From the NCBI GenBank assembly GCA_944323335.1, contig CALUSB010000001.1:1-64000 (forward strand): DNA of 64,000 nucleotides, in the 5' to 3' direction. This document shows, one piece after another, positions 480 through 55,556 of this stretch. The stretch comes from Candidatus Gastranaerophilales bacterium. Its GTDB lineage: Bacteria; Cyanobacteriota; Vampirovibrionia; Gastranaerophilales; Gastranaerophilaceae. The translations under genes and the position numbers were made by a program. The stretch's first letter is position 1; the number at the start of each line of letters is the position of its first letter. A model generated the notes under the pieces. It was given only the letters and a program-made list of their open reading frames with translations, ran no database searches and was not told the DNA's origin.

Positions 480-761
480 ATGAGGCTAACAAACCGCGAA
501 GCGCAGGTGATGTCGCTGCTTTGCAGCGGTCTTAAAGACCGTGCCATAGCAAACACTCTGAATCTTAGCGTAAGAACCGTTCAAAATTACCTCGCAAGAA
601 TCTACATCAAATACCATGCGAAAAACAGAACTCAGGCGGTGTCTAAATTTTTAAACATTCACGGAAAATTAGTATTGGATTTAATTTCAGGAGAAAAAAA
701 TGAAAAGGATAATTCTTCATTGGACTGGAGGGAAATACACTCCCTCGTCAACGGATTTTGA
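480..761 (+). CDS. stand-alone LuxR/GerE-type helix-turn-helix regulator
   Basis: The 93-residue product is almost entirely a LuxR C-terminal HTH domain (about residues 3-58: LTNREAQVMSLL, then IANTLNLSVRTVQNYL). It has no receiver or ligand-binding domain. The ATG at 480 is preferred over an upstream ATG at 447, because GAGAGG lies just before 480. The last 62 bases overlap the start of the amidase gene, so the two are probably translated together. A DNA-binding role in prophage control is inferred. Small HTH proteins of this type also occur in phage late regions as transcription activators. Confidence 0.75.
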   Translation: MRLTNREAQVMSLLCSGLKDRAIANTLNLSVRTVQNYLARIYIKYHAKNRTQAVSKFLNIHGKLVLDLISGEKNEKDNSSLDWREIHSLVNGF

Positions 762-1185
762 GCACTATCATTTTTTAGTTGATAAGTGCGGGGATATTTT
801 AAAAGGAAAATACACCCCCGAGGACAATTTAAACTGCAATGACGGCAAATATGCCGCCCACTGCGGAGGTTTTAATACAGGCTCAATAGGACTTAGCATT
901 TGTGCCATGTGGGGCTATCAAAGTCCAAAACATATAGGCGACTACCCTTTTGTAAGAGTGCAAGGTGAGGCAGCCTGGTCATATTGCGCGACACTGCTTA
1001 AAAAATACAATCTAAAGCCCTCAAAAGACACTGTTATGACACATTATGAAGTAGGAAAAATGCTCCCTAAATCTACAAGTGCAGGCAAAATTGATATTAC
1101 ATATATCCCCTACGAGCCGACTATAAGCGCGGATGAAGCAGGAGATTACATAAGAAATAAAGTAAGGTGGTACTATGAGCGATAA
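700..1185 (+). CDS. phage endolysin, N-acetylmuramoyl-L-alanine amidase (Amidase_2 fold)
   Basis: The 161-residue protein matches the T7-lysozyme/PGRP amidase family, which cuts the bond between muramic acid and the stem peptide. Likely zinc ligands are H7 (in ILHWTGG), H115 (in MTHYEVG) and D132; K130 in GKID is the usual active-site lysine. The central GSIGLSICAM block matches the family core. There is no signal peptide, so release would need a holin, and none is certain here. It overlaps the HTH gene upstream and the neck-protein gene downstream, consistent with one late transcript. Confidence 0.88.
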   Translation: MKRIILHWTGGKYTPSSTDFEHYHFLVDKCGDILKGKYTPEDNLNCNDGKYAAHCGGFNTGSIGLSICAMWGYQSPKHIGDYPFVRVQGEAAWSYCATLLKKYNLKPSKDTVMTHYEVGKMLPKSTSAGKIDITYIPYEPTISADEAGDYIRNKVRWYYER

Positions 1186-2710
1186 TAAACTTGCGTTTTA
1201 TGACTTCTCAGGCGGTATAAACACAAACGCCACAAAGGTAATGCTTGGTTACGGAGCAAAAAAACTCAACTGGGATGACAGTTACAACGTAGAACTGTAC
1301 AAAAATCAAGGCGTTGAGAGAATGATGGGTAATCAAACATACTTAGATGATGACACAACTGACGAGTGCTCAATTGTAGGCATATATGAATACCCTAAAT
1401 CAACAGACGGCTTTATATATGCCCGCTCGGACGGAAAAATCAAATACTATAATTACCTTACAAGAACATCTGAGGTAATTTTTGATTATGAAAAAGAAAT
1501 AACATCTGCCGATTTTACCCTGTATCTTGACGGTGTAATATTTTATGCCGGAGGATGCGAGGCTTATTATTATAACTCTTCAATGAGCGGAGAAAAAGTA
1601 AAACCGCTTAATATAAAAGATACAAATGAAAACGACATTGTACCTGATGCAATTTGTACATTTGCAGGACGTATCTGGATTGGTTCAAAATCAACACTTT
1701 ACTTTAGCGCGCTTGGCAGATATGATGACTGGGAAAGCCCGAATGACGCAGGTTACATCTCAAATTTTCACTCTTCGGTAACAAAAATATCGGCACTTGC
1801 TCTATACTGCGGAAACCTTGCTATATTTAAGCCAGACGGTGTATATCTGCTCTCAGGCACATCACCTGATAATTTTAGCGTTATAAAGTTTGCAGATAAA
1901 GGTGTTCAAGCTCCAAAAGCAGTATGCACTTGCAACAATAAACAATACTTCTTTAATGCAGACGGGCTTTTTGCGCTATCTCAAGTAGGCGAACTCTCGC
2001 AAATAATGATGAGCGGAAATATAGCCTACCCTGTAGAAAGCTCTTTTAAAGACATGGACACAAACCGCATAAGTGAAGCTTTTTGCGTGCCGTATGAAAA
2101 GAAAAATCAAATATGGTTTTATCTTCCATACAATGATGACAAGTATTTTAAAACCATTATGGTTTACGATTTTGCTAATGATTGCTGGACAAAAAGAATA
2201 GAAGAGCAGGAAATTACCTGTGCGACAAACGTAAACTATCAAATAATATCGGGCTGTTCAAACGGCAAAATACTTATGGAAAATATAGGCAGTACATTTG
2301 ACGGATTACCTATTAAATTCAGCTTTTCTACACCTTTTTTCCACCTTGGCAAACCATCTGAGAGAAAAATTGTGGAAGATTTTGCACTTCTGCTCGATGA
2401 AACAGGAGAAAATCGCTTTAAGTTCAGCGTTTCAAAGGATTTTATAAAAGAGATAAAAACAGACCACGAGTATATTAAAACAACTCAAACAGGTGCTCTC
2501 ATATGGGCAAGCGAAGATGAACCAAAAAACAACTACAACTGTTTTGAAACAGCATACAACCCCATTTGGGCACATTCATACCAGAGCACTGTAGGAGTGC
2601 AGATATTTGATTCTAACCTTAGTGTGGCAATTCACATCGAAGGGGAAGAGGAAAATGACGGTTTTAAACTTGTCGGAATAGAATTTAAGGAGCTTTTAAA
2701 TGACTTCTAG
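1175..2710 (+). CDS. phage neck/tail hub protein, P22 gp10-like beta-propeller (putative)
   Basis: The 511-residue protein has no signal peptide or membrane segment. Its opening SGGINTNATK and the repeated aromatic, Gly-rich blocks (for example FAGRIWIGSKSTLYFS and NLAIFKPDGVYLLSG) resemble the stabilisation or hub proteins that close the portal of short-tailed phages. The assignment rests on pattern and position: it sits between the endolysin and a small adaptor-like gene, in a region that also encodes portal, capsid and terminase. It overlaps the amidase gene by 11 bases and the next gene by 11 bases. Confidence 0.6.
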   Translation: MSDNKLAFYDFSGGINTNATKVMLGYGAKKLNWDDSYNVELYKNQGVERMMGNQTYLDDDTTDECSIVGIYEYPKSTDGFIYARSDGKIKYYNYLTRTSEVIFDYEKEITSADFTLYLDGVIFYAGGCEAYYYNSSMSGEKVKPLNIKDTNENDIVPDAICTFAGRIWIGSKSTLYFSALGRYDDWESPNDAGYISNFHSSVTKISALALYCGNLAIFKPDGVYLLSGTSPDNFSVIKFADKGVQAPKAVCTCNNKQYFFNADGLFALSQVGELSQIMMSGNIAYPVESSFKDMDTNRISEAFCVPYEKKNQIWFYLPYNDDKYFKTIMVYDFANDCWTKRIEEQEITCATNVNYQIISGCSNGKILMENIGSTFDGLPIKFSFSTPFFHLGKPSERKIVEDFALLLDETGENRFKFSVSKDFIKEIKTDHEYIKTTQTGALIWASEDEPKNNYNCFETAYNPIWAHSYQSTVGVQIFDSNLSVAIHIEGEEENDGFKLVGIEFKELLNDF

Positions 2711-2936
2711 TAACAATGAAATTAACTACGAATATCAGCAAATGCTTGGAGCTCACGCCATTTGGACAAAAAGCTCCGTCTTTGCCGACTTTAGCATAAA
2801 AATCAGCGCAAACAAGTTGCTTGATGACTTAAAAGGCAGTCAAAGAGGCAAAAAACTCGCCTCAAAAATATATCTTGAGGGTTTAGACAGATTTGTCTGC
2901 CGGGGGTTTAAATACGAATTTTTAGGTTTTGTATAA
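2700..2936 (+). CDS. small phage protein of unknown function, 78 aa
   Basis: The protein is soluble, has no recognised domain and is strongly basic in its second half. The gene overlaps the neck-protein gene by 11 bases and ends just before the next gene, so it belongs to the late structural transcript. Its size and position would suit a head-tail joining protein, but the sequence itself gives no proof. Confidence 0.6.
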   Translation: MTSSNNEINYEYQQMLGAHAIWTKSSVFADFSIKISANKLLDDLKGSQRGKKLASKIYLEGLDRFVCRGFKYEFLGFV

Positions 2937-2946
2937 AGGAGGAAAA

Positions 2947-3609
2947 ATGAGCACAGAAAACACTTCGCAACTAAAGCCAACTTACTTTGATATCTTTAAA
3001 AAGGTACTAAATGAACTGAGCTGGAGAGAAGTTTCAAGTTTTGAAGAAATAGAAAAAAGCGAACACAAAAGAGTTCTAAACCTTATTAATATGACAAACT
3101 CGGATGTTTTAAGCTCATATATTTGGGACTTTCAAATTGAAAAACAAGAAATAGAAGTCAAACAAGATGAAACAACTATTATGAGCGACTTTGGCGGAAG
3201 AATTATCTCTGTATGGGAAAATTCAAACAAATACAGGTACATTCACCCGACACAACTAAATCCCAAAACTTCAAACAGGGTTGATATTTATTCAAATATC
3301 GGAAATTTAATCATAACAACACCGCAAAAACACAAAAGAAAGCTAAGTATAATCTATGTTTCAGAGCTCTACGCCCAAGATGCGGAAGGTAATAAAAAAG
3401 CAATAATGCAAAACAGTGACGACACAAGCATATTGCCGCTGCCGTATATGGAGCAAATTCTTGTTTACGGCACATTAATAAGGGTTAAAGCAAACCCGTC
3501 TTTTGCAAAATTTAACTACTGGAGAACCCTATACTACAGCGCCATAACAAACCTTAGAGCAACAGGAGCTAAGTCAAGCGAAGATACTCCAAGAATCACT
3601 TTTGGTTAG
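2947..3609 (+). CDS. phage head-tail adaptor-like protein (putative gp4/tail tubular A type)
   Basis: The start at 2947 is chosen because AAAGGAGG lies directly upstream; an ATG at 2929 lies before that site. The 220-residue product begins with a helical section (FDIFKKVLNELSWREV) followed by a segment rich in W, Y and acidic residues. This is the layout seen in gp4 and gp11 tail-completion proteins of podoviruses. Position next to the hub-like protein supports the call, but no motif is decisive. It is followed by an oppositely oriented membrane-protein gene whose stop codon nearly meets its own. Confidence 0.5.
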   Translation: MSTENTSQLKPTYFDIFKKVLNELSWREVSSFEEIEKSEHKRVLNLINMTNSDVLSSYIWDFQIEKQEIEVKQDETTIMSDFGGRIISVWENSNKYRYIHPTQLNPKTSNRVDIYSNIGNLIITTPQKHKRKLSIIYVSELYAQDAEGNKKAIMQNSDDTSILPLPYMEQILVYGTLIRVKANPSFAKFNYWRTLYYSAITNLRATGAKSSEDTPRITFG

Positions 3610-4076
3610 TAAGATTTTGTAAAATTCAAAATAACAAAAGTTACGCTATTTGAAAATATTATAAGGAACAGGCAGAAAAGTACCACCGTAAGGAACTTTT
3701 GAAAATCAGAAAACACAACTGCTTTTTTGTTTTTCTTAGCTTCCTGAAATGCCTGATATTCTTTCCTGTAAGGGTTAAAAGGAAGCATATTTTCCATTTC
3801 TTCTAAAACCTTAGAATATTTAATCTTTATTAAAAACTGATAACTGTCAAGGTTTAACCACCACATAACACAAATAGCCATACCAACAACAGAGCCTACT
3901 ACAAGAGGCATAAGCGAAGGCGTGAGAGCGTTAAAGATATACAAAAGCAAAAACAAAACTAAGGACAAAACAAGATAAAACCTGTTTGTCTGGAAGTTTC
4001 TTGTTGTAAATTCCTCTTTTGATTGTGAATAAATCCTGTACTGTTCTAAAACAAGAAATTTTTCGTCATTTTGCAT
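3606..4076 (-). CDS. antisense two-helix membrane protein, RipA-like family (putative)
   Basis: This is a minus-strand gene inside a plus-strand phage structural operon. The ATG at 4076 is preferred because a GGAG site precedes it; the longer frame to 4127 would overlap the next gene's start. The 156-residue product has an N-terminal helix (LEQYRIYSQSKEEF), two membrane segments (about residues 34-75), a conserved-looking W-x-x-x-x-SY stretch and a C-terminal cytoplasmic LEEMENMLP segment. A third hydrophobic stretch closes the protein. The pattern resembles the RipA family of oligomeric membrane proteins, often found in mobile or defence regions. A role in superinfection exclusion is only a guess. 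Confidence 0.6.
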   Translation of the reverse strand: MQNDEKFLVLEQYRIYSQSKEEFTTRNFQTNRFYLVLSLVLFLLLYIFNALTPSLMPLVVGSVVGMAICVMWWLNLDSYQFLIKIKYSKVLEEMENMLPFNPYRKEYQAFQEAKKNKKAVVFSDFQKFLTVVLFCLFLIIFSNSVTFVILNFTKSY

Positions 4077-4126
4077 ATCAACATTCTCCGACTTAAAAAT
4101 ACCACAAATTAGCAAATGAGGCAACA

Positions 4127-4669
4127 ATGAAAATAGATAAACTAAAAGACTTATTCGAAATAAATTTTGAAAAACCGACTCTGGTTGATTTACCCGAAGT
4201 CTTTAAATACTGCAATAAATACCATTACCGCCTGTTTGACGATAATTTTTACTACATAAATTTATCGACAAGCGAAAAATTCATTAAATTTGTCAGAAAT
4301 TTTAAAGACGCGATTTATTGCATAAAACTAGGTAAAGAAGACCGTTTTGGAGGGTTTTTCTACCTTTATAACAGAAAAAAAACACCCTTTGGTGCAACAG
4401 ACACAAGCGTTACATTTTGCATAGCAAGACCCTACTGGGGTTTTGGCTCGTATTTAATAGCAAAAAAGGGTATCAAATTTTTATTTGAAAAAATGAAAGT
4501 GAGAAAGCTCACAATTGAAATAGTGGGCGAAAACACTCTTGCAAGAAGCCTTATAGAAAAACTCGGGTTTGAATTTGAAGCAAGGTTGAAAGACGAATGC
4601 TATAAGTTCAACAAACCCTGCCATCTATACGTATTTTCGATATTTAATCCCGCACTACAGTGCGGATAA
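4127..4669 (+). CDS. GNAT-family N-acetyltransferase
   Basis: The 180-residue protein shows the GNAT core: a beta-strand region ending in FCIARPYWGFGSYLIAKKG (acetyl-CoA-binding region, with Q/R-x-x-G-x-G/A altered to Y-W-G-F-G-S) and the family's NTLARSLIEKLGF motif. Acetyl transfer to an amine is the expected activity; the substrate is unknown. The gene lies immediately upstream of the major capsid gene. GNAT genes occur within virion modules of several podoviruses, so modification of a virion protein is possible. GAGGC lies 5 bases before the ATG. Confidence 0.75.
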   Translation: MKIDKLKDLFEINFEKPTLVDLPEVFKYCNKYHYRLFDDNFYYINLSTSEKFIKFVRNFKDAIYCIKLGKEDRFGGFFYLYNRKKTPFGATDTSVTFCIARPYWGFGSYLIAKKGIKFLFEKMKVRKLTIEIVGENTLARSLIEKLGFEFEARLKDECYKFNKPCHLYVFSIFNPALQCG

Positions 4670-4695
4670 GCAGATAAAAAAGAAAGGAAGAAACC

Positions 4696-5550
4696 ATGTC
4701 ACAACAAACCAACTACAGCAGCTTGATTGTCAGCACTTGGAGTAAAAAGATTAACGCGGGTTTAGATAAAACCTGTACAATGCTACAGTGTGTAAACCGT
4801 GACTATCAGGCAGAAGCCGACAACGGCACAAGCGAAATTAAAATCGCAACACCTGAAAGCGTTGCAACAGGAGCATACACAGGTACTCTGCCTGCTTACA
4901 GTGCAGCAACCGTATCAAGCAAAACTCTTAAACTTGACCAAAGCTTATACTTTGCTTTCAGTGTTCCCGATATCGTTCAGGCCCAAACTAATGTGCAGCT
5001 GACAGATACAATTCTTACAAAAGCACAGAAGGCAATTGACGAGGGTATAGACAAATATATTTTCACAATGCACCAGTACGCAGATAGCGCAAACATTATC
5101 GAAGGCGAATCAACAACAGCTATTACCCTTGATAAAACAAATGTATATTCTCACTTTGTATCTCTTGCGAAATTACTTAAAAACTCAGGCGCTATAACTC
5201 CTCAAAAACAAGGCTGGGTTGTAGTTCACCCCGATGTAGAAGAAATTCTTTTACTTTGCGAACAATTCTCAGGCTCATCCAATGAATCGGATAAAGCTAA
5301 AAAAGAAGGTTCAATAGGCAGAATAGCAGGTCTTGATGTATTTGTAAGCAACAACGTAGGAAAAGGCGAAGACGAAGGTTATATCATCATGGCAGGTACA
5401 ACAGACGGTATTACATACGCTTCTCAGTTAAAGAAATTTGAACAAATAAGAGCCGAGCAGTCATTTGACACGGTTGTAAGAGGATTATACACATTTGGTG
5501 CAGTTGCACTTAATCCTAAAGCACTTGCAGTCTTAAAATGTGAAATATAG
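4696..5550 (+). CDS. phage major capsid protein (HK97-fold/P22-like)
   Basis: The 284-residue protein has the layout of a phage coat protein: an N-terminal arm, a helix rich in Q, K and A (about residues 97-125, TDTILTKAQKAIDEGIDKYIF), a spine-like helix near QGWVVVHPDVEEILLLCEQF, a conserved IAGLDVFVSNNV stretch and a C-terminal RGLYTFGAVALNPKALAVL strand. AAAGGAAG precedes the ATG. It lies next to a scaffold-like gene and in the same region as portal and terminase, which supports the assignment. Its stop codon abuts a repeat element. Confidence 0.85.
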   Translation: MSQQTNYSSLIVSTWSKKINAGLDKTCTMLQCVNRDYQAEADNGTSEIKIATPESVATGAYTGTLPAYSAATVSSKTLKLDQSLYFAFSVPDIVQAQTNVQLTDTILTKAQKAIDEGIDKYIFTMHQYADSANIIEGESTTAITLDKTNVYSHFVSLAKLLKNSGAITPQKQGWVVVHPDVEEILLLCEQFSGSSNESDKAKKEGSIGRIAGLDVFVSNNVGKGEDEGYIIMAGTTDGITYASQLKKFEQIRAEQSFDTVVRGLYTFGAVALNPKALAVLKCEI

Positions 5551-5878
5551 ATACGAGCTCGCTCTCATTGGACGCATCGCGTCACAATTCGAGCTTCGCA
5601 TAGTCCAGTGTCGCATAAGCCCACCGCCTCATCGGCGCTGTGCATATGCTCACATCCTCAAGACTCGCTCGCTCTCATTGGACGCATCGCGTCACAATTC
5701 GAGCTTCGCTCGGGTATGGTTCGTGCTTTGTGCCAAGCTCCTCGCTTGCCACATACGCACTTCACACACCAAAGACTCACTCGCTCTCAGCGCGCACAGT
5801 CGTGCAGCGCTTCGAGCTTCGCTCGTAAGCGTAGTGCAGAAGCCTTGCTCATCGCAAGTCATCTGCACCGGCTTCGCC
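5551..5878. repeat. dispersed GC-richer mosaic repeat, copy 1
   Basis: About 330 bases of clearly higher GC interrupt the capsid-scaffold spacing. An exact 43-bp segment occurs twice (5557-5599 and 5667-5709). A 129-bp core (5700-5828) matches 54226-54354 on the same strand with about nine mismatches and no gaps. A following 50-bp module (5829-5878) resembles 54174-54223. Short palindromes such as CGAGC-TTC-GCTCG recur. Open frames across it are not believable genes. It is followed by eight A residues and a hairpin. Confidence 0.85.
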
Positions 5879-5901
5879 AAAAAAAAGTCCCCGAGGGGGA
5901 C
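5879..5901 (-). terminator. hairpin with T8 in minus orientation, at the end of repeat copy 1
   Basis: Read on the minus strand, GTCCCC-CTC-GGGGAC is followed by eight T residues, the form of a rho-independent terminator. No minus-strand gene lies upstream to need one, so it more likely travels with the repeat element. The same hairpin-T8-repeat arrangement occurs at the second copy. Confidence 0.55.
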
Positions 5902-5933
5902 GTTTGTAAAACTAGGTTAAAGGAAGGGATAAG

Positions 5934-6572
5934 ATGAAAGATAATATGGTCCAAGAACTTTTGCTAAGAGCGCTTCTTGCCAAGCAGCCCGCAACAGGAA
6001 CACCAAGCACTAATACCAACCAACGTCAAAATGCATCGTTTAGTACACAGAACAACTCAAGAGAAGTTCTTACGGCTCTCTTAAAGTCCTTGTACTTAAA
6101 TAATGCCCCAAAACAAACAGCTTCTAACACAAATAATACAAATATTAACACAACGCCTCAAACACCCGTTAAGGCTCAAATTCAGGCTGATAAACCCGTT
6201 GTTTTTGAAGAATTTATGAAACAAAACCCTGATTTTTTCAACGGCAGAGAAGTATTATTTGAATATTTAAACTCACTTGGTGCAAATTTTGACAAAGAAG
6301 AACTGGATAAAATCGCACAAATCGTGAAAAGAATGGAAGAAGACGCAATCAAACGCTTTTGCGCCCAAAACCCTAAGTATGCAAACTTTTTGCAACAGGA
6401 AAATTCAAAATTTTTAAACAAACTTGAAAATAACGGCAAAAGCGAAATTGACGGCAGCCTAAAAAGCCGCCGATACTATAGCGCAAGTGACATCGACTCT
6501 ATGACAACAGATGAATTTCTAAAGCATGAAGATGAAATTAACGCACAAATAATGGATTTAATCCGCAGCTAA
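5934..6572 (+). CDS. phage scaffolding protein (putative)
   Basis: The 212-residue protein is polar and low in complexity at its N terminus (runs of N, T and Q to about residue 80), then helical (PVVFEEFMKQNPDFF, DKIAQIVKRMEEDAIKRF). It ends with a compact acidic motif (about residues 183-208) containing DIDSMTTDEF and EDEINAQI. This shape, and its place between capsid and terminase genes, fit a scaffold whose C terminus binds coat protein. The same terminal motif recurs in the product of the gene at 10977. AAAGGAAGGG lies upstream of the ATG. Confidence 0.65.
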   Translation: MKDNMVQELLLRALLAKQPATGTPSTNTNQRQNASFSTQNNSREVLTALLKSLYLNNAPKQTASNTNNTNINTTPQTPVKAQIQADKPVVFEEFMKQNPDFFNGREVLFEYLNSLGANFDKEELDKIAQIVKRMEEDAIKRFCAQNPKYANFLQQENSKFLNKLENNGKSEIDGSLKSRRYYSASDIDSMTTDEFLKHEDEINAQIMDLIRS

Positions 6573-6582
6573 CGACTCCTTG

Positions 6583-6624
6583 CCTCGGGTAGTCTTGATT
6601 TTCGAGGCTGCCTGAGGTTTTTTT
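6583..6624 (+). terminator. rho-independent terminator after the scaffold gene
   Basis: A long imperfect stem starting CCTCGGGTAG pairs with GAGGCTGCCTGAGG across a short loop and is followed by seven T residues. It splits the prophage transcript between the capsid/scaffold genes and the terminase/portal genes, implying a separate promoter before the small terminase gene. Confidence 0.75.
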
Positions 6625-6632
6625 AAAAATCG

Positions 6633-6655
6633 GATAAAAAAAAGGGGTCGAAACC
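6633..6655 (-). terminator. short hairpin with A-run, minus-orientation terminator-like
   Basis: GGGG-TCGAAA-CCCC is preceded on the plus strand by a run of A residues, so on the minus strand it reads as hairpin plus T-run. With the terminator just upstream it may insulate the two halves of the prophage. The rest of the gap up to 6745 is AT-rich and probably holds the promoter of the terminase genes, but no clear -35/-10 pair was settled on. Confidence 0.4.
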
Positions 6656-6745
6656 CCATTCGCATACTAGCCGAAGCATTAACAACAAGTTTATTGTACA
6701 TAACTTATCTGTAAAAATCAATTACTTTATTAAGAAATATTAAAA

Positions 6746-7150
6746 ATGGATAAAGATAATATAAATATTAATCAAAAAAAATTTCTGGAGAATTATGCCA
6801 GAACACTAGATGCAGAGCACAGTGCGCACCTTGCAGGATACAAGAATAAAAACTCTGTTACAAATGTAAAAAAAATCCTCGATGACCCGAAAAAAATAAA
6901 TTTCTTAAACAAAATAATAAAACAAAGTGCGCAAAAACTCGAAATCACAAAGGCATTTGTTGTTCAGAAATACTTAAAAATCATTGAATATGCGTTTTTT
7001 GAAGATGAAAACGGCCTAAAAGAGCCTCAACTTGCGCTAAGAGCACTTGACGGACTCTGCAAACAGCTCGGGGGCAACAGGCATGAAGAATTAAAAAATA
7101 AAAAATCCATATTTGAAAACATAGAAGGGCTCGACCCTGATAAAATTTAA
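6746..7150 (+). CDS. phage terminase small subunit
   Basis: The 134-residue protein opens with the Terminase_2 pattern (QKKFLENYARTLDAEHSAHLAGY), a helix-turn-helix that recognises the packaging site, followed by KILDDPKKINFLNKII and a central helix for ring formation. Family length is usually about 130-170 residues. It precedes the portal gene by 12 bases; the large terminase follows the portal instead of directly following it, an unusual arrangement. Confidence 0.8.
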   Translation: MDKDNININQKKFLENYARTLDAEHSAHLAGYKNKNSVTNVKKILDDPKKINFLNKIIKQSAQKLEITKAFVVQKYLKIIEYAFFEDENGLKEPQLALRALDGLCKQLGGNRHEELKNKKSIFENIEGLDPDKI

Positions 7151-7162
7151 GAAAGGCAGACT

Positions 7163-8866
7163 ATGAAAAATACTGAATTTGAGCAGATAAAGCTCAGTGA
7201 TTTGGAACTTGAAGAAATAAAAAATAAAATCATAAACAAGTTCGACAATTTGCACGAAAAAAGACGAAACCAACTCTCGCACATAAAAAGCATAAAAAAC
7301 GCCATATACTCATCACACAGCCACAGTGAACTCGGCACAAAAAAGCTCTCCCTGCCTGACGCGTGGGAGCAGGCAACAACCCTTAAAGCACATTTGCTTG
7401 AGGCAATATCTTCTTATCCCGAGGGGCTTTTTGATGTTTCTGAAGCAGATAACTCAAGCTCTGAGCGCGCTAACAATCACAAAATATTTTTATGCAGGGC
7501 GCTTGAGAAGATGAAATTCTCGCAAAAACTTGAAGAAATAATAGATAAACTTATTGAAACAGGAGAAATAATCCTCTTTGTGGGCTGGGAAACAAGATGG
7601 AGAAAAAGGCGCATTGCTACAACTCTTTATGAAAAAATCCAAAACCCCATGCTTGATTCTTTTAAAATCATTAAAGAAAAAACCTATGAAGGCGCATCAC
7701 TAAAGATTATACCCTCGCATGACTTTGTTTTTGATACAAATAGGGCGCAAAACTGGGACGCATGCCCTAAAATTCAAAGAAGCTGGATGGAAGTAAATGA
7801 AATCCTTGAAAATAAAGAAAACTTCACCATAAATGACACCGTTAAATGCGAGCTTGAAACCCTGCTTGAGCGCTCAAAAAAAGACAAAGACACAACAGGC
7901 GTATCTGACGGACTTGTTGAAGTATTAAAATTTTGGGGAAATATCAGACTTGAATCCGGTAAAATTTTAAAAAACCGCCTTATTGTTGTTGTAGGAAGAG
8001 TTGCCGTAGTTCAAAACGAAGCAAATCCCTATATAAGCTGCCCCTATATCTATGCAAACATAACTCAAGACCCCGCAACAAAGCGCGGTTTAAGCCCGTT
8101 ATCGCCCATTTTACCCGTACTTGAGGCGGCAGGCGAGATTATGCAGACACAAATTTTAGGTCATAAACTCGTGTCCAATCCTCCGTTTTTAGCACCAAGA
8201 GGGGCATTCCACGGAGAGATAGAAGTAAAACCGGGTAAAATAATTGAATACGACCCCTCGCTTTTACCTCAAATGCCTCAACCGCTTAATTTTAGCGCCA
8301 TGCTTGGCGGCTGGGAATTTATTAAATTCTTTAAAAGCCAGATTGAAAGCGCCACAGGCGTATTTGAAAATATGGCAGGGCAATTGCAGCCTCTTGAGCG
8401 CAGCGCAACTGAAATAAACTACAGCGCAAACGGTCAAAGTGCACGTCTTAACTGGCTTGTAGATTCTATAAACAGAAAAATTATTATACCGCTTTTAGAA
8501 AAAACAGCCCTTACAAACGCAAACTTTATGCTTGAAAATACAAAAATAAGCACAGAAGTTGAAGGTAAAGCAGTAACTATAGAAATTACCCCCGATGTCA
8601 GAGAGGGCAATTTTATCTACAGATACTCCGACAGAAAAACAACTCTGGCTAAAAACAACAAATTTAAAGAAATAGAAAAAACAATCTCAGAATTTGCAAA
8701 AGTAAGCTCGCTTGCCGAAAAAATCAACTGGGAAGAATGTTTTAAATACGCACTAAGCAGCCTTGGAGTAGAAAATACATCAAAATTTCTTTTGAATAAC
8801 AACGATGTAAAAACCGCTCAGAACTCTTCTTTAGGGGGCAATGAAAATGAAATACAAACTCCTTAA
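7163..8866 (+). CDS. phage portal protein
   Basis: The 567-residue protein fits the podovirus portal family: a conserved-looking LPDAWEQATTLKAHLLEAI near residue 65, a GWETRWRKRR segment, and a long C-terminal half with SPLSPILPVLEAAGEIMQTQ and the clip/stem-like region around GVFENMAGQLQPLERSATEI. It would form the dodecameric DNA gate at one capsid vertex. It is flanked by the small and large terminase genes. AAGAAAGG lies before the ATG, and its end overlaps terL by 26 bases. Confidence 0.8.
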   Translation: MKNTEFEQIKLSDLELEEIKNKIINKFDNLHEKRRNQLSHIKSIKNAIYSSHSHSELGTKKLSLPDAWEQATTLKAHLLEAISSYPEGLFDVSEADNSSSERANNHKIFLCRALEKMKFSQKLEEIIDKLIETGEIILFVGWETRWRKRRIATTLYEKIQNPMLDSFKIIKEKTYEGASLKIIPSHDFVFDTNRAQNWDACPKIQRSWMEVNEILENKENFTINDTVKCELETLLERSKKDKDTTGVSDGLVEVLKFWGNIRLESGKILKNRLIVVVGRVAVVQNEANPYISCPYIYANITQDPATKRGLSPLSPILPVLEAAGEIMQTQILGHKLVSNPPFLAPRGAFHGEIEVKPGKIIEYDPSLLPQMPQPLNFSAMLGGWEFIKFFKSQIESATGVFENMAGQLQPLERSATEINYSANGQSARLNWLVDSINRKIIIPLLEKTALTNANFMLENTKISTEVEGKAVTIEITPDVREGNFIYRYSDRKTTLAKNNKFKEIEKTISEFAKVSSLAEKINWEECFKYALSSLGVENTSKFLLNNNDVKTAQNSSLGGNENEIQTP

Positions 8867-10136
8867 AACCCAGAAGAAATTTCTCGAAGTGCCGCACAAT
8901 GAAGAACTCGACGTATGCGTATATCAAGGAGGATTCGGCTCAGGTAAAACCTGGGCCGGGTCACTTTTAGGGACACTTTTGTGCTTAAAGTTCCCCGGCA
9001 TAAACGGACTTTGCGGGGCACAGACTTATTCTCTTGTGCGTGACACAACGCTTGAAGCCTATTTTGAACATTTTGACAACTTTGAACTTCAGGAGGGCAA
9101 CGACTGGCAGTTTATAAAATCTCAGCAAAAAATAGTATTTAAAAACGGCTCAAATATACTCTTCAGGCACTTTGACGAACCAAACAAACTAAAATCTCTC
9201 AACCTCGGCTTTGCAGAAATTGAGGAGATGTCAGATATCCCTGAGGCAACTTTTAAAATGCTTTTGGGGCGTATGCGCCAGAAAAAAAAGAAAAACTGGC
9301 GGGATTTTAAATACAGAATTTTTGGACACACCAACCCTCAAAGCAGAAGAGGCTGGATATATAAAAATTTTTATGAAAACAAAAAACCCAACTGGCGGCT
9401 TGTTTTGGCACCGTCAACGGAAAATATCTATCTGCCAAAGGATTTTTGCGAAAATCTAAAAAGCGCATATGATGAAAATTATTACAAAAAAAACGTCTTG
9501 GGCGAATTTGAAGAGGACAATTGCCCCCTTGTTGTACCTAACTTTTCAAAAGAAAATATAGAAAAAATAAACTATCTGGAATTTTGCGACCTGCATATAT
9601 CCTGCGACTTTAACGTAGACCCGATGTGCTGGTTATTGGCTCACATTGACAATCACAGAGTATATTTCTTTGATGAAATTGTCCTTGAGAACACCACAAC
9701 AACAAAAACCTGTGAAGAATTCGCCAGAAGATACCCTAACCACAAAGGCAAAATAATCATAAACGGCGACGCCTCGGGCGATAATCGCACTTGTGTAAGC
9801 GAGTATACAAATTACATGCTGATAAGAAACTTTTTTGCCCAGAGAATGAAAAGGAATGTAGAATTTCACCTAAGGCAGTTTAACCCGCCTATTAAAAACA
9901 GAGTAGCGGCATTTTGCTCCATGATGCAAACCATGGACAGACAAAGACACATATTAATTGACCCGAAGTGCGAAAAATTGATATACAACCTGAACAATCT
10001 AAAATACCGAGAGGGCGGCTCTAATATTGATATACCGACATATTGGGCAATTAAAAACAACAAAGAGCTAAAATACCTCTCTCACCCGTTTGATGCCGCC
10101 AGCTACCTTGTAGAGTACTATTTTCCAATTACTTAG
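8841..10136 (+). CDS. phage terminase large subunit (packaging ATPase/nuclease)
   Basis: The 431-residue motor protein has an N-terminal ATPase with Walker A GGFGSGKT (about residues 30-37) and Walker B-like LGFAEIEEM, plus the coupling region GHTNPQSRRGW. The C-terminal RNase H-like nuclease shows the acidic sites SCDFNVDP, INGDASGD and HPFDAASY. It cuts concatemers and drives DNA into the prohead through the portal. A second ATG at 8847 has better spacing from the GGGGG upstream, so the true start may be two codons later. No truncation is visible. Confidence 0.92.
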   Translation: MKMKYKLLKTQKKFLEVPHNEELDVCVYQGGFGSGKTWAGSLLGTLLCLKFPGINGLCGAQTYSLVRDTTLEAYFEHFDNFELQEGNDWQFIKSQQKIVFKNGSNILFRHFDEPNKLKSLNLGFAEIEEMSDIPEATFKMLLGRMRQKKKKNWRDFKYRIFGHTNPQSRRGWIYKNFYENKKPNWRLVLAPSTENIYLPKDFCENLKSAYDENYYKKNVLGEFEEDNCPLVVPNFSKENIEKINYLEFCDLHISCDFNVDPMCWLLAHIDNHRVYFFDEIVLENTTTTKTCEEFARRYPNHKGKIIINGDASGDNRTCVSEYTNYMLIRNFFAQRMKRNVEFHLRQFNPPIKNRVAAFCSMMQTMDRQRHILIDPKCEKLIYNLNNLKYREGGSNIDIPTYWAIKNNKELKYLSHPFDAASYLVEYYFPIT

Positions 10137-17400: not shown

Positions 17401-17550
17401 CCTCGTCAATTGGAACCCACTTCAAGAGTAGCACCAATCGCTAACAACACTACAGACCCAACATCAGGTATTGTTAACGCAGCTGCAAGAATAGAAGTTG
17501 ATGAAAACGCTACAACTACAAAAGACGATGAAGATGAATTTAAAATTTAG
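14410..17550 (+). CDS. TpsA exoprotein, filamentous haemagglutinin-type beta-helix protein
   Basis: The 1046-residue protein has a signal peptide ending near AMA-IDAG (about residue 31), then the TPS secretion domain with NPNGILFGNGA at about residue 133, and a cysteine pair in SCAGGDC. A long Asn/Thr/Lys-rich region of short repeats follows (patterns such as NVTTENTNV and GNINLTQ), expected to fold as a right-handed beta-helix. The C terminus has one Cys and a Pro-rich stretch before an acidic tail. It is the substrate of the divergent TpsB. Adhesion is likely; no haem-binding, protease or toxin domain was recognised. Confidence 0.9.
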   Translation: MKLKHKKLTSMLILLSFLSYMPLSTTTAMAIDAGTLPTLDNSINGSVTTDGNRMDVTVQGGSGTVGQFDWKDFNVGSGAHVNFGFTANSQTSLNRVLASGGLSQIYGKLTNSCAGGDCSSYMGTGKVILINPNGILFGNGATVDLNSFTATTFDLKGAKNLSDLSPAELEAYKAQINVVNGLPADMVTNAQFIRDGVLATKDGASVTVDGAKMNIDKSLALAADNVNIYKGSLIQTNLNPNYGGGQNAANHDQSFSNVRIVTSDGVNFTYQLNGNIKNHKANSSSNPKVANNINIDGATIKSGAVTIENAGTKSGSNVNIKNSIVKGYKLVNNEYGDIIIKGKEDVTIADSHLQTNNTSIKSNKDTYSQNGGRIAISAGNNVKLTNTKIESAYSGKNFSGGSTGSNAGDITIAANKGNVTTENTNVHAKGNLLVAAAGKINAKDSTLRARNYSSHDDNAANLLKKVELTANNGVTLDNTYTESSDYTTVYTPGNITVKNGSVMYSPNKALNLYGANTTIADSTLVYNGLNFVHPSGMVNNVTISGTTALNDKTPYADGLKLSTNGNLTIDGNSLLKRGFSATVDEDTLDMNVTLGETSNQDSITLESTGGKVTIKNGSDIKTNKGDFTAKAVDSAKGEVFVQNSKIAAAGNINLTQALTHNAGTHITKDSALSAKNINITTKNADADINADIDNFANLSYSERLALNAGRDNNITGTGNLNAQRVDFNATRNNNINIKGNVTTDDVVFNGHVNNITATGNVTLKNSTIKAKDTAAPENTKTNINAGGNFTTDKTVLKVNGTKLIANADKDTDIVLAGANNKKAGIEINAKYTSDQLSNKTVTINAADNVLAISKIKSGNLNLDSNDTFLAALTNLTSSDLEGVTEDASGRAYIEVANWGKFNLDPMDEYTTDFTQSDYFTYTDHFVPGKRQPEAGNAIDTFKKHFIEFDSNGVTEKFLLVYEKPFGCEEPPVVNPPEDNFDPGISSDLDSLINQLRLPRQLEPTSRVAPIANNTTDPTSGIVNAAARIEVDENATTTKDDEDEFKI

Positions 17551-51442: not shown

Positions 51443-52704
51443 TGAAAAAACTCAGACTGTCTGCAAATGAAATAATTAAAGAAGCCGAAAGTGAAGTCAA
51501 AAAGTATTTTGACAAAATTGATGAAATCTGCGACTACAATCAGGAAAAAGTTCTTCGCGCCTTCCAAAAAAATAAAATAGGCGAGGAGCATTTCTACACC
51601 GTAACAGGCTACGGACACGATGATATGGGGCGCGAGGCTTTAGATAATGTCTTTGCTGATGTTTTTAAGGCACAAAAAGCAATAGTGCGCCCGCATTTTG
51701 TGTCAGGCACACACACTCTTGCCTGTGTACTTTTTGGCATTTTAAGGTATCAAGATACTCTAATGTCAGTTGCAGGAAAACCCTATGACACGCTGGATGA
51801 AATAATAGGCCACTCACGAGAGGGTGAGCACCCCGAGTGCTCGCTTAAAGGGCACGGTGTAGACTACATTGAAGTACCCTTAATCGATGATACGCTTGTT
51901 GATTATGGAGCTATTTCAAGAAGAATTACACCAAATACTAAAATGGCTCTTATTCAACGCTCAAGAGGATATAGCCTTAGACACTCAATTTCTATAAGAG
52001 AAATTGAGCAGATAGTTCTGACGATTAAAGAAAAAAACCCTGATACAATTTGCTTTGTAGATAACTGCTACGGGGAATTTGTGGAAGATAGAGAACCGCT
52101 TGAAGTAGGCGCTGATATTATTGCAGGCAGCCTTATTAAAAACCCCGGCGGCGGCATAGTTGAAGCGGGAGGCTATATTGCAGGCAGAGCAGACCTTGTG
52201 GATATGTGCGCAAATCGCCTTACAGCACCGGGTATAGGTTCTGAGGGCGGAGCAATGTTTAATCAGACAAGAGTAATGCTGCAAGGGTTCTTTATGGCAC
52301 CGTCAGTTGTAGCACAAGCCCATAAAGGGGCACGCCTTGCGGCAAAAGTATTTGAAACAATAGGTTTTAAAACTCACCCCCGCTCAAGAGAAGACAGAAC
52401 AGATTTAATTCAAACGGTTAAATTTGAAAACCCCGAGGCTCAGGCAGCATTTTGCAGAGCACTTCAAAAATACTCTCCTGTTGAGAGCTACCTCACCCCT
52501 ATACCCGATGGTGTCCCGGGGTATGATGATAAGCTCATCATGGCAGGCGGAAGCTTTATAGAGGGCTCAACGCTTGAACTTTCAGCAGACGGGCCCGTAA
52601 GGCCTCCTTATGCGGTTTATATGCAAGGGGGGCTTAATTACTCGCATGTAAAAATTGCACTCAAAGGCATAATTGAAGAGTTAAAAAACATTAATCCTGC
52701 TTAA
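51442..52704 (+). CDS. methionine gamma-lyase family (YnbB-type) PLP protein
   Basis: The 420-residue fold-type I PLP enzyme shows RPHFVSGTHTLACVLFGILR, CFVDNCYGEF with the PLP Asp, and the lysine region GSLIKNPGGGIVEAGGYIAG. It matches the family once annotated as aluminium resistance protein and now usually called methionine gamma-lyase family. The actual substrate is not known. Its ATG overlaps the flavodiiron stop codon. Its end overlaps radA, which converges, by 14 bases. Confidence 0.87.
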   Translation: MKKLRLSANEIIKEAESEVKKYFDKIDEICDYNQEKVLRAFQKNKIGEEHFYTVTGYGHDDMGREALDNVFADVFKAQKAIVRPHFVSGTHTLACVLFGILRYQDTLMSVAGKPYDTLDEIIGHSREGEHPECSLKGHGVDYIEVPLIDDTLVDYGAISRRITPNTKMALIQRSRGYSLRHSISIREIEQIVLTIKEKNPDTICFVDNCYGEFVEDREPLEVGADIIAGSLIKNPGGGIVEAGGYIAGRADLVDMCANRLTAPGIGSEGGAMFNQTRVMLQGFFMAPSVVAQAHKGARLAAKVFETIGFKTHPRSREDRTDLIQTVKFENPEAQAAFCRALQKYSPVESYLTPIPDGVPGYDDKLIMAGGSFIEGSTLELSADGPVRPPYAVYMQGGLNYSHVKIALKGIIEELKNINPA

Positions 52705-54091
52705 AAGCTTGAATTATAGCATCAGTCAGCTTTGTAACCTGAATGGTTTTTATCTGCAATTTTTCAATTTTTTGAGCAATATTTTTGTTTACTTTTGGAA
52801 TTATTGCATACTCAAAACCAAGCTTTTGAGCCTCCTTGAGGCGCTTTTCAAGGTTATCCGTGGCTCTTATTTCTCCTGAGAGACCAATTTCACCAATCAT
52901 AACGGTTTTATTTTTAAGAGGAATGTCTCTTGCGCAGCTTAAAACCGCAAGCGCCACGCCCAAATCAGCCGCCGGCTCAATAATATCAATACCGCCAATT
53001 ACATTTATATAAACATCTTGTTTTGATAAATTCAGACCCACTCTTTTTTCAAGCACTGCAAGTATTTGAAGCAATCTGTTATACTCAATGCCCCTTGCAA
53101 CACGTCTTGGATTAGGATATGGAGTAGAGCCCGTCAGGGCTTGAATTTCAAGCAGTAAAACCCTTGTACCCTCAAGCGTTGCGATAATTGAGCAGCCGCA
53201 GCTTGAAGTATCAGAGGGATTTAAAAACAATTCAGACGGGTTTAGAACTTCATTTAGTCCGTCATCTTCCATATTAAAAACACCCACCTCAGATGTCGTT
53301 CCAAAGCGGTTTTTAATAGAGCGCAAAATCCTATAGCTTTTATATCTGTCGCCCTCAAAGTTTATAACGCAATCAACCATGTGCTCTAAAACCTTTGGCC
53401 CGGCTATGTTTCCCTCTTTTGTCACATGACCGATTATAACCGTTGTAATATTTTTTTGTTTAGCGATATGCATTAAAATATTTGTGCACTCTCTAATCTG
53501 AGAAACAGAACCCGATGAGCTTGTAATCTGAGAGGAATACACTGCCTGAATAGAGTCCACAACCAAAAAATCGGGCTTAATTTCATCAATTTGTTTTATA
53601 ACTTCTTCAAGGCAGTTTTGATTTGTGACATATAAATTCTCAGCATCCGCCCCAAGCCTTTGCGCCCTTAATTTAACCTGCTGGGGAGATTCTTCCGCGC
53701 AAATATACAGCGCACAAATCGGGTCTTTATTTTCTTTTTTGGAGCATAAATTTTTGCAAGTTTGCAAAATAAGAGTAGACTTACCGATACCGGGGTCGCC
53801 TGCCAGCAATACAAGAGAGCCCGCCACAAAACCGCCGCCTAAAACTCTGTCAAACTCTTGCATATCGGTTTTGAGGCGAATTTTTTCATCATTTTCTATA
53901 TCTTTTATTTTCTTTGCGGATAAATCAACATTTAAAATAACCGAAGATGAATTTGTCTTAGCTGCAGTCGGCTCTTGCACGACTTCTTCGCAAAATGTCG
54001 CAAAGTTATTGCAATCAGGACATCTGCCAAGGTATGAAAAACTCTCATACCCGCAAGATTGACACACCCATTTAGTTTTTGTTTTAGCCAT
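52691..54091 (-). CDS. radA: DNA repair protein RadA
   Basis: This DnaB-like, RecA-related branch-migration ATPase has 466 residues. The N-terminal zinc finger is C-Q-S-C plus CPDC (about residues 10-31). The RecA core has Walker A GDPGIGKST and the RadA motif KNRFG in IKNRFGTTSEVG. The Lon-protease-like C-terminal domain covers about 290-460. The second copy of the dispersed repeat lies directly upstream of its start, from 54111. Confidence 0.95.
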   Translation of the reverse strand: MAKTKTKWVCQSCGYESFSYLGRCPDCNNFATFCEEVVQEPTAAKTNSSSVILNVDLSAKKIKDIENDEKIRLKTDMQEFDRVLGGGFVAGSLVLLAGDPGIGKSTLILQTCKNLCSKKENKDPICALYICAEESPQQVKLRAQRLGADAENLYVTNQNCLEEVIKQIDEIKPDFLVVDSIQAVYSSQITSSSGSVSQIRECTNILMHIAKQKNITTVIIGHVTKEGNIAGPKVLEHMVDCVINFEGDRYKSYRILRSIKNRFGTTSEVGVFNMEDDGLNEVLNPSELFLNPSDTSSCGCSIIATLEGTRVLLLEIQALTGSTPYPNPRRVARGIEYNRLLQILAVLEKRVGLNLSKQDVYINVIGGIDIIEPAADLGVALAVLSCARDIPLKNKTVMIGEIGLSGEIRATDNLEKRLKEAQKLGFEYAIIPKVNKNIAQKIEKLQIKTIQVTKLTDAIIQAFKQD

Positions 54092-54110
54092 AGAGTAATT
54101 TTAGCACAAA

Positions 54111-54352
54111 ACTTGCCACATGCGCACTTCACACACCTTAGACTCGCTTGCTCTCAGCGCGCACAGTCGTGCTCGTAGTGCACGGACTTGCTTAAAGCAA
54201 GTCCTATCGCACCGGCTCACGCCTTCGAGCTGCGCTCGGGTACGGTTCGTGCTTTGTGCCAAGCTCTTCACTTGCCACATGCGCACTTCACACACCATAG
54301 ACTCGCTTGCTCTCAGCGCGCACAGTCGTGCTGCGCTTCGAGCTTCGCTCGT
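54111..54352. repeat. dispersed GC-richer mosaic repeat, copy 2
   Basis: A 63-bp segment occurs twice with one mismatch (54111-54173 and 54270-54332). The 129-bp core 54226-54354 matches 5700-5828 and a 50-bp module (54174-54223) resembles 5829-5878, here placed before the core and not after it. The element lies between flagellin and radA, upstream of radA. It is not coding in any frame that looks like a protein. The strand is the same as copy 1. Confidence 0.85.
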
Positions 54353-54378
54353 AAAAAAAAGGACCGGTTTCCCGATCC
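54353..54378 (-). terminator. terminator of the flagellin transcript, abutting repeat copy 2
   Basis: On the minus strand GGATCGG-GAAA-CCGGTCC is followed by eight T residues. It lies about 60 bases after the flagellin stop codon. The T-run directly meets the repeat element, the same arrangement as at copy 1. Confidence 0.8.
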
Positions 54379-54438
54379 ACTGTATTGCCATCACCAGTTA
54401 GATTGTTTTTTATCTACTTAGCTTTTTTGTTGTAAATC

Positions 54439-55299
54439 CTATATCAGAGACAGTGCAATTGACGGTTGTTGATTTGCCTGTGTCAATAGTGAAGCTGATG
54501 CCTGTTGAAGAATTTGATATTTAGTGTAATTTGATGACTCTTCACCGATATCAGCATCCATTATTCTTGATTTTGCTGCAAGCAGGTTTTCATTTTGAAT
54601 ATCCAAACTATCAATAGCAGAGTTCAATCTGTTTGTTATAGCACCTATAGTACCTCTTCTTGTTGAAATTTCCTTAATACCGACATCAATTTGGTCCAGC
54701 ATTGTTCTAAAATCAGCATCAGCTATAATATCACCACCATCTATGAATTTTATGGCTTGACCTACTCTTCCGGTAAGTACAGATACCGTAGCTTCCGTAA
54801 ATACACCATCTACTTCGATAGTATTTGTAGCCTTATCTGATTGAGCACCTATTTGCAGAACCAAAGGGTCAGCTCCGCCTGTAGGGAAAAGTTGAAATTC
54901 ATTAAACTTTGCGCCGTTTGAAATCCTATCTATTTCTGCCGTTCTTTCCACAACTTCATCTTCCATTGCTTGAACTTCTTCAGCGCTATAACCGCCGTTC
55001 ATAGCTTGAAGAGTCAAGTCACGTATTCTTAAAAGATGTTCTTGGATTACATCTAAGTTTCCTTCTGCTGTTTGCAACAGGTTAATACCTGTTTGTGCGT
55101 TATTTTGAGCAACAACCGAACCTCTTTGTTGTGCTTCTAAGCCCTTTGCAATTACAAGCCCTGCAGCATCATCAGCCGCTTGATTAATTTTTAAACCTGT
55201 AGTTAAGCGCTCAACTGCCTTTGACATGCTGGTTGTAGCGTGGTTTAAATTTCTTTGTACTTTAAGTGAATCGACATTTGTGTTTACAACAATAGCCAT
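54439..55299 (-). CDS. flagellin
   Basis: The 286-residue protein starts at the ATG at 55299, where AAAGGAG precedes it; the longer frame is not needed. The D0/D1 N-terminal region is clear (NTNVDSLKVQRNLNHATTSM, LTTGLKINQAADDAAGLVIA, then RIRDLTLQAMNGG), and the C-terminal D1/D0 helices are RGTIGAITNRLNSAI and ILQQASASLLTQANQQPSIAL. The central domain is short. It would form the flagellar filament, but no other flagellar gene occurs in the window. Confidence 0.9.
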   Translation of the reverse strand: MAIVVNTNVDSLKVQRNLNHATTSMSKAVERLTTGLKINQAADDAAGLVIAKGLEAQQRGSVVAQNNAQTGINLLQTAEGNLDVIQEHLLRIRDLTLQAMNGGYSAEEVQAMEDEVVERTAEIDRISNGAKFNEFQLFPTGGADPLVLQIGAQSDKATNTIEVDGVFTEATVSVLTGRVGQAIKFIDGGDIIADADFRTMLDQIDVGIKEISTRRGTIGAITNRLNSAIDSLDIQNENLLAAKSRIMDADIGEESSNYTKYQILQQASASLLTQANQQPSIALSLI

Positions 55300-55556
55300 A
55301 AGTAGACTCCTTTCAATTGACGGCACAAATCCTTTTTGCCGTTTTCTAACTAATATGTGATGGTGTAACTATTTTTTAATGAGGCAATTTACAATCTTTT
55401 AAAAAAGTAATTGGTGATTGACTACATTGTTAATATACAAGGTTTTCAACCCCTTTAGAATTATAGGAAAGTTAGAATTTCTTCATACCGAAGTATAATT
55501 TATTGAGCAAAAATCTTATGTGCGCTATAATTGACTAAAAAGTTTGGAATGGAATA
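55300..55556. promoter_or_regulatory. divergent region between flagellin and dnaB
   Basis: A candidate promoter for dnaB has TTGAGC at 55503-55508 and TATAAT at 55526-55531, spacing 17 bases. No sigma-28 flagellar promoter consensus was recognised upstream of flagellin. A short CGGCA/TGCCG hairpin lies in the flagellin leader at about 55321-55341. Confidence 0.5.

What the first reader, a model, noticed from the sequence alone, without database searches (positions are those of the whole stretch)
5551..5901. GC-richer mosaic repeat family shared by prophage and chromosome, attached to hairpin-T8 terminators
A 129-bp core is about 93 percent identical between 5700-5828 and 54226-54354 with no gaps, in the same orientation. 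Internal 43-bp and 63-bp duplications and a reordered 50-bp module make each copy a mosaic. The family contrasts with the AT-rich background. Its presence inside a phage head operon and before radA suggests a mobile or REP-like element, not a gene remnant.
Basis: seen in the sequence. Interest (0 to 1): 0.6.

Follow-up and report, generated by a model that had tools for sequence, protein, structure and literature searches.

The report
Hairpin repeat arrays beside transcription terminators
Two GC-rich stretches in this gut-bacterium genome are arrays of short DNA hairpins, an undescribed REP-like repeat family of the Gastranaerophilales that sits right beside transcription terminators, changes its stem sequences while keeping them paired, and has no recognisable transposase.

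Summary
5700-5828 and 54226-54354 match at 120 of 129 positions; the 43-bp and 63-bp repeats exist; both regions are 56-58% GC in a 37% GC window. They are non-coding arrays of two alternating imperfect hairpins: L (about 56 bp; frames GGTACGG..CACACACC or AGTCCAGTG..CACATCC) and S (about 50 bp, GCTCTC..TTCGAGC), plus an occasional third hairpin. The genome holds at least 14 L units at about 10 loci. The family occurs across genus Galligastranaerophilus and in several other genera of the same family. Stems are hypervariable but paired: S stems are 98.5% paired, with 53 double changes, no one-sided changes and almost no G-T pairs. About half of array ends abut the T-tract of an intrinsic terminator; the same sites are empty in sister species. 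Sister species differ by exact L+S units. S-tip types are shared between unlinked sites of one genome far more than between orthologous sites (P about 5e-5), so copies convert one another. No Y1 (RAYT-type) transposase is present, even in array-rich relatives. Best reading: a new REP/BIME/BOX-like palindromic repeat family, inserted at terminators by an unknown route and maintained by unit gain/loss and gene conversion. The phage copy is inherited vertically.

The parts
5557..5599 (+). S hairpin unit, tip type S1 (left end truncated)
   Evidence: 100% repeat of 5667-5709; S profile hits
5602..5657 (+). L hairpin unit, frame B (AGTCCAGTGTCG..CTCACATCC)
   Evidence: the B+S unit is absent from sister species G003
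5661..5712 (+). S hairpin unit, tip S1
5713..5770 (+). L hairpin unit, frame A (GGTAYGG..CACACACC)
5773..5825 (+). S hairpin unit, tip S2 (GCGCGCAC..GTGCAGCGC)
   Evidence: S2 tips found only in G000 and G003, at three unlinked sites each
5829..5878 (+). C hairpin module
   Evidence: fold
5879..5901 (-). A8 run plus GTCCCCGAGGGGGAC hairpin: terminator on the minus strand, conserved at the empty sites of relatives
54108..54111 (.). A4 left of the array, possible trace of insertion inside the A-run
   Evidence: empty site L145 against occupied L140 and window
54112..54137 (+). right half of a frame-A L hairpin (array truncated at the hairpin loop)
54140..54238 (+). S unit (tip S2) with a C hairpin module (about 54174-54222) inserted in its right arm
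54239..54296 (+). L hairpin unit, frame A; 54239-54351 is the 113-bp L+S unit absent from G003
54299..54351 (+). S hairpin unit, tip S2
54353..54378 (-). A8 run plus GGACCGGTTTCCCGATCC: terminator of the flagellin gene
   Evidence: Flagellin_N/C domains
4696..5550 (+). phage major head protein gene left of array 1
   Evidence: phrog_267 major head protein, E = 9e-35
5934..6572 (+). 212-aa gene of unknown family right of array 1
52691..54091 (-). radA-like gene left of array 2
   Evidence: KaiC/RadA-type ATPase, ChlI and Lon_C domains
54439..55326 (-). flagellin gene right of array 2

Best explanation
The feature is a member of an undescribed family of non-coding modular palindromic repeats of the Gastranaerophilales, similar in kind to REP/BIME and BOX elements. 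Each array is a head-to-tail chain of two alternating imperfect hairpins (L and S), with an optional third (C). Arrays enter intergenic space preferentially at the T-tract of intrinsic terminators (shown: occupied and empty orthologous sites; the enzyme is unknown). They then grow and shrink by whole L+S units (shown between sister species; recombination between the repeated S units is inferred). Copies within a genome exchange S tips, most simply by gene conversion through the conserved L/S frames (pattern shown, mechanism inferred). Hairpin formation itself is conserved (shown by covariation), more likely as DNA (cruciform or single strand) than as RNA because wobble pairs are almost absent (inferred). 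The likely effect on the host is that of other REP-like elements: mostly selfish or neutral, possibly insulating the ends of transcription units (inferred, untested).
For: Dispersed family: 5 matches in the own genome and matches in 18 further relatives; B frame in 16 of 383 order genomes with reversed control 0; A frame in genera g1, g3, g22, g25, g27, g30 and g37 of the same family, chance level outside it. Covariation: S stems 98.5% paired, 53 double changes, 0/500 shuffles as high, slides fall to 20-50%; L(B) 92.4% paired, 46 double changes. G-U share of pairs: S 0.6/1.6%, L 1.4/6.1% (two strands), against 11% in local tRNAs and 10-13% in shuffles. Terminator docking: 22 of 43 array-terminal S ends lie within 10 nt of an A-run, 24 of 43 if the two with a C module between are counted, at five distinct terminator sites with empty orthologues at three of them. 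Exact unit gain or loss: G000 = G003 + 113 bp at the flagellin site and + 110 bp at the head-gene site. Concerted tips: same class 17/26 within genome against 14/71 within site, P about 5e-5. Arrays fold better than shuffles: z = -6.1 as DNA, -9.8 as minus-strand RNA for array 1. Non-coding: unit lengths 110 and 113 shift the frame; the same peptide appears in different frames within one array.
Against: Copy number found (14 or more L units) is well below classical REPs (over 100 copies/genome, PMC2817692), though MAG contigs often end inside arrays so it is underestimated. No clear target-site duplication or fixed left boundary. About half of array ends are not at terminators. Array 2 folds only modestly better than shuffles as minus-strand RNA (z = -2.5). 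Sister species are not independent in the concerted-evolution test. Transcription and binding proteins are unknown.
Confidence: 0.72

Rival explanations
1. Classical REP/BIME mobilised by a RAYT or IS200/IS605-type Y1 transposase in the same genome.
For: Imperfect hairpins with fixed irregularities, conserved unpaired flanks, two-hairpin units, extragenic location.
Against: No Y1_Tnp in the own genome, in 13 of 14 congeners or in 9 array-rich genomes of other genera, while the controls ring. No GTAG/CGTC tag on L or S. Units in the same orientation. Few copies.
Confidence: 0.1
2. A functional structured RNA (for example a 3' regulatory or attenuator RNA) read from the minus strand downstream of the terminators.
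For: Minus-strand RNA folds very stably (z = -9.8); strong covariation; bottom-strand L folds are more stable than top (-24.0 against -18.0 kcal/mol).
Against: Each array starts after a strong terminator, so little RNA is expected. Gain, loss and swapping of units between sister species. Almost no wobble pairs. No Rfam match at gathering or relaxed thresholds. Empty sites in many congeners.
Confidence: 0.12
3. Group IIC-intron-like or other retroelement remnants, which also target terminator hairpins and T-tracts.
For: The T-tract side is fixed and the other end variable or truncated; reverse transcriptases occur in 9 of 15 congeners.
Against: No RT in G000, G003, G007 or G001, all of which have arrays; no group II intron match in Rfam; no conserved ribozyme-like core.
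Confidence: 0.06
4. Remnants of a coding gene, or an assembly artefact.
For: Long open frames (126 and 109 aa) cross array 1; contigs tend to end in arrays.
Against: Unit gain or loss of 110/113 bp shifts the frame, the same repeats appear in different frames, and different arrays occupy orthologous sites in separately assembled genomes.
Confidence: 0.02

Closest known systems
REP / BIME elements with RAYTs (PMC2817692, PMC3733652)
   Same: Extragenic imperfect palindromes, stems varying with complementarity kept, mosaic clusters, at ends of transcription units.
   Different: Hairpins of 50-60 bp rather than 20-40; no GTAG or CGTC tag on L or S; head-to-tail arrays instead of alternating orientation; far fewer copies found; no Y1/RAYT; G-T pairs nearly absent, whereas they are reported as frequent in GTAG REPs (PMC3733652).
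BOX elements of Streptococcus pneumoniae (PMC3049150)
   Same: Composite modular element with a variable number of internal units, strongly folded, dispersed between genes.
   Different: No sequence relation examined or expected; no boxA/boxC-type ends; hypervariable compensated stems; docking at terminator T-tracts.
attC sites / CALIN arrays of integrons
   Same: Arrays of imperfect hairpins with fixed irregularities and variable stems (from general knowledge).
   Different: No GTTRRRY/RYYYAAC core sites seen in the frames, no gene cassettes between the hairpins; integrase not tested.
Group IIC introns
   Same: Also insert just after a terminator hairpin and T-tract (from general knowledge).
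   Different: No intron RNA, no RT in this genome.

Membership tests
REP/BIME (RAYT-associated) | short extragenic palindromes dispersed in the genome | tested here: met
   L and S hairpins between genes at about 10 own-genome loci
REP/BIME (RAYT-associated) | high abundance (usually over 100 copies per genome, PMC2817692) | tested here: not met
   at least 14 L units in the own genome; draft assembly undercounts
REP/BIME (RAYT-associated) | terminal unpaired GTAG or CGTC tag | tested here: not met
   frames of L are GGTACGG/AGTCCAGTG; S has GCTCTC..TTCGAGC
REP/BIME (RAYT-associated) | alternating orientation in clusters | tested here: not met
   all L and S units of an array share orientation
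REP/BIME (RAYT-associated) | cognate Y1/RAYT transposase in the genome or relatives | tested here: not met
   0 hits in own genome and in array-rich relatives, controls positive
BOX-like composite repeat | modular ends plus variable number of internal units | tested here: inconclusive
   variable number of L+S units shown; no dedicated end modules; BOX sequences not compared
MITE | terminal inverted repeats and target site duplication | tested here: inconclusive
   no fixed left end; A4 on the left and A8 on the right at one site only
attC / integron array | R'/R'' boxes with GTTRRRY / RYYYAAC and gene cassettes | tested here: inconclusive
   no such boxes or cassettes seen by reading the units; no attC model was run
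Group II intron | ribozyme RNA and intron-encoded RT | tested here: not met
   no Rfam match; no RVT_1 in own genome
Any Rfam RNA family | match to a curated covariance model | tested here: not met
   only tRNAs found

The most novel reading that the evidence does not exclude
A repeat class that spreads without any transposase of its own, by a process acting on DNA hairpins and terminator T-tracts (for example replication-fork template switching or an unknown hairpin-recognising enzyme), with stems diversified as matched pairs and homogenised between loci.
Probability: 0.25. Interest if true: 0.75.

Novelty: new variant of a known kind. Interest (0 to 1): 0.5.

Why it matters
It adds a repeat family in a little-studied, mostly uncultured gut lineage, with unusually clear snapshots of its life cycle: empty sites, single-unit sites, unit gain or loss, and tip replacement at several loci. 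The near-total absence of wobble pairs offers a testable DNA-level (not RNA-level) reason for hairpin conservation, and the absence of a Y1 transposase challenges the idea that REP-like repeats need a RAYT.

Tried and rejected
Phage-borne mobility: no match in INPHARED, no relative of the head protein in IMG/VR by this search, and only one B-frame pattern hit in IMG/VR (L094), which I take as chance because about one such match is expected in a collection of that size and its interior differs from every family unit. Coding origin: frames do not survive unit gain or loss. Known RNA: Rfam negative at two thresholds. Y1 transposase: absent. Y2 transposase: no hit, but the control did not ring either, so uninformative. 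RT: present in some congeners but not correlated with arrays. MAFFT misaligned mixed-length L units, so covariation was counted on the 58-nt subset.

Full report
OBSERVATION. 5700-5828 and 54226-54354 are 120/129 identical without gaps. The 43-bp and 63-bp direct repeats exist. Both regions are 56-58% GC in a 37% GC window. Both end at an A8 run followed by a GC-rich hairpin, that is, an intrinsic terminator of the minus strand.

ANATOMY. Aligning copies from this and related genomes resolves the mosaic into modules. L is an imperfect hairpin of about 54-62 nt with one of two frames, GGTACGG..CACACACC (A) or AGTCCAGTGTCG..CTCACATCC (B). S is a hairpin of about 50 nt (GCTCTC - tip - TTCGAGC). 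C is an occasional third hairpin (TAGTGC..GCACCGGCTY). Arrays run S-(L-S)n, with all L and S units in one orientation. Array 1 (5557-5878) is S1-B-S1-A-S2-C. Array 2 (54112-54351) is half-A, S2 with C inserted in its right arm, A, S2.

STRUCTURE IS CONSERVED, SEQUENCE IS NOT. Over 17 distinct S units 98.5% of cells pair, with 53 double (compensatory) changes and no one-sided change; sliding the partner by 1-3 columns drops pairing to 20-50%, and none of 500 shuffles reaches the observed pairing or covariation. Over 16 distinct 58-nt B-type L units 92.4% pair, with 46 double changes. Mismatches and bulges recur at fixed places across units with entirely different stems. In minimum-energy folds of 90 distinct L and 47 distinct S units, G-U makes up 1.4%/6.1% and 0.6%/1.6% of pairs (two strands), against 11% in tRNAs from the same loci and 10-13% in shuffled units. 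For comparison, PMC3733652 reports G-T pairs as frequent in GTAG-type REPs. My inference is that the hairpin is kept at the DNA level. The caveat is that tips also move as whole blocks, which preserves pairing automatically; the small matched changes inside one tip type (for example AGCAGTGC/GCACTAGCT against AGCGGTGC/GCACCAGCT) are not explained that way.

DISTRIBUTION. The own genome (1.67 Mb draft) has array loci on contigs C1 (two), C7, C10, C12, C21 (two), C36 (both ends), C45 and C48. The full 331-bp query hits 13 of 14 congeners and five genomes of other genera of the family. The B frame is found in 16 of 383 genomes of the order with no reversed-pattern match. The A frame is found in seven genera of the same family, while matches elsewhere in the phylum are at the level of the control and lack the hairpin. 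Public names of the congeners' records place the genus as Candidatus Galligastranaerophilus. No INPHARED phage matches. The single IMG/VR pattern hit is taken as chance.

SITES. At the head-protein site, relatives L042-L047 and L049 have no array (the stop codon lies at or close to AAAAAAA-GTCCCC..GGGAC), L048 has one S unit, L041 a remnant, and L039, L040 and the window have larger arrays. At the flagellin terminator, G012 (L145) is empty (GCAT-AAAAAAAA-GGATCGG) where G003 and G000 read AAAA-array-AAAAAAAA-GGACCGG beside the same radA start. A third terminator (CGGCTC..GAGCCG-T8) is empty in G002, G004, G008 and G011 and occupied in eight congeners. Two more terminators carry arrays. Of 43 array-terminal S ends, 22 abut an A-run directly and two more do so through a C module. 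So the T-tract side is a preferred, fixed boundary, while the other end varies. This is shown for about five independent sites only, so the preference is real but rests on a modest number of events.

DYNAMICS. The window's array 2 equals the G003 array plus exactly one 113-bp A+S unit, and array 1 equals the G003 array plus one 110-bp B+S unit. Direction (gain or loss) is not resolved. Tip type S2 occurs only in G000 and G003, at three unlinked sites in both, where G009 has S1 at all three. Over 27 site-genome cells, tip classes agree in 17/26 within-genome pairs against 14/71 within-site pairs (permutation within sites P about 5e-5). Sister species are not independent, so this P is optimistic, but the direction is clear: copies in one genome homogenise one another. 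Gene conversion through the conserved frames is the simplest account.

MECHANISM AND PARTNERS. No Y1 transposase is found in the own genome, in 13 of 14 congeners or in nine array-rich genomes of other genera, with working controls. A Y2 search was uninformative. Reverse transcriptases occur in 9 of 15 congeners but not in four genomes that carry arrays. Rfam gives only tRNAs. How a first unit arrives at a T-tract is therefore open; unit number and tip exchange need only the host's recombination.

THE PHAGE CONTEXT. Flanking genes are phage: major head protein, terminase small and large subunits, connector. The same gene order, including a minus-strand gene at 3606-4127, is conserved at about 44-100% protein identity in the 11 sister loci, and the scan of IMG/VR found no relative of the head protein. 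The operon is thus inherited vertically within the genus, and the array there is one more terminator-adjacent site, not evidence of phage transport.

CODING AND ARTEFACT. Long open frames cross array 1, but units of 110 and 113 bp shift the frame and the same peptide appears in different frames within one array. Different arrays at orthologous sites in separately assembled genomes exclude a single misassembly.

COMPARISON WITH KNOWN KINDS. Definitions used for REP/BIME come from PMC2817692 and PMC3733652, and for BOX from PMC3049150. The family shares with REP/BIME the extragenic, imperfect, stem-variable palindromes in mosaic clusters, and with BOX the composite build with a variable number of internal units. 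It lacks the GTAG/CGTC tag, the alternating orientation, the abundance and the RAYT that define REP/BIME.

VERDICT. A new palindromic repeat family that works like REP/BIME or BOX elements but fails several defining tests of REP/BIME. It is therefore filed as a new variant of a known kind, not as a REP. Any role at transcript ends is inference.

Noticed in passing
window 700-10136; L039-L049: Podovirus-like head/packaging operon (endolysin, head, connector, terminase) syntenic in 11 sister species with an embedded minus-strand gene (3606-4127) and no IMG/VR relative of its head protein found: a vertically inherited, possibly domesticated or GTA-like prophage.
   Followed up: partly
window 5887-5933 and L041-L049: The hairpin and the following stretch GTAAAACTAGGTTAAAGGAAGGGATAAG before the 212-aa gene are almost invariant across the genus; as a minus-strand terminator in a plus-strand operon this is odd and may mark an antisense or small RNA.
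   Followed up: no
window 54353-54420; L139-L152: The flagellin 3' UTR (AACAATCTAACTGGTGATGGCAATACAGTGGATCGG..CCGATCC-T8) is far more conserved than the coding end, suggesting a 3'UTR-derived small RNA.
   Followed up: no
L027, L030, L055 and orthologues: A conserved stretch of about 90 nt ending in the CGGCTCGATGC..GCATTGAAGCCG terminator, with no Rfam match: candidate small RNA of the genus.
   Followed up: partly
L009, L079, L087: A further module (GTGCCCACAAACTCTTAGTGAG..CTTAGAGTTTGGAAATGCCCTTGGGG) sits inside the loop of S hairpins, i.e. a hairpin nested in a hairpin.
   Followed up: partly
L009, L011, L029, L051, L143, L150: Other palindromic repeats in congeners: GTCACCCTGAACTCGTTTCAGGGTCT and GATGCTGAAATAAATTCAGCATGAC, plus GCTCCTGTGG..TACGTCGCC and CCGCCTGTGCAAT..CAACGGCGG modules with variable tips.
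   Followed up: no
L179-L184; G002:C1:337293: Reverse transcriptases of about 390-410 aa in 8 congeners, one within about 1 kb of the flagellin terminator site in G002; type (retron, DGR or other) not determined.
   Followed up: no
window 14410-17550: 1046-aa protein with a TPS secretion domain (two-partner secretion exoprotein).
   Followed up: no
G000 C36, C45, C48; L010, L024, L028, L059: Contigs of these draft genomes often end inside the arrays, so repeats break assemblies and copy numbers are underestimates.
   Followed up: partly
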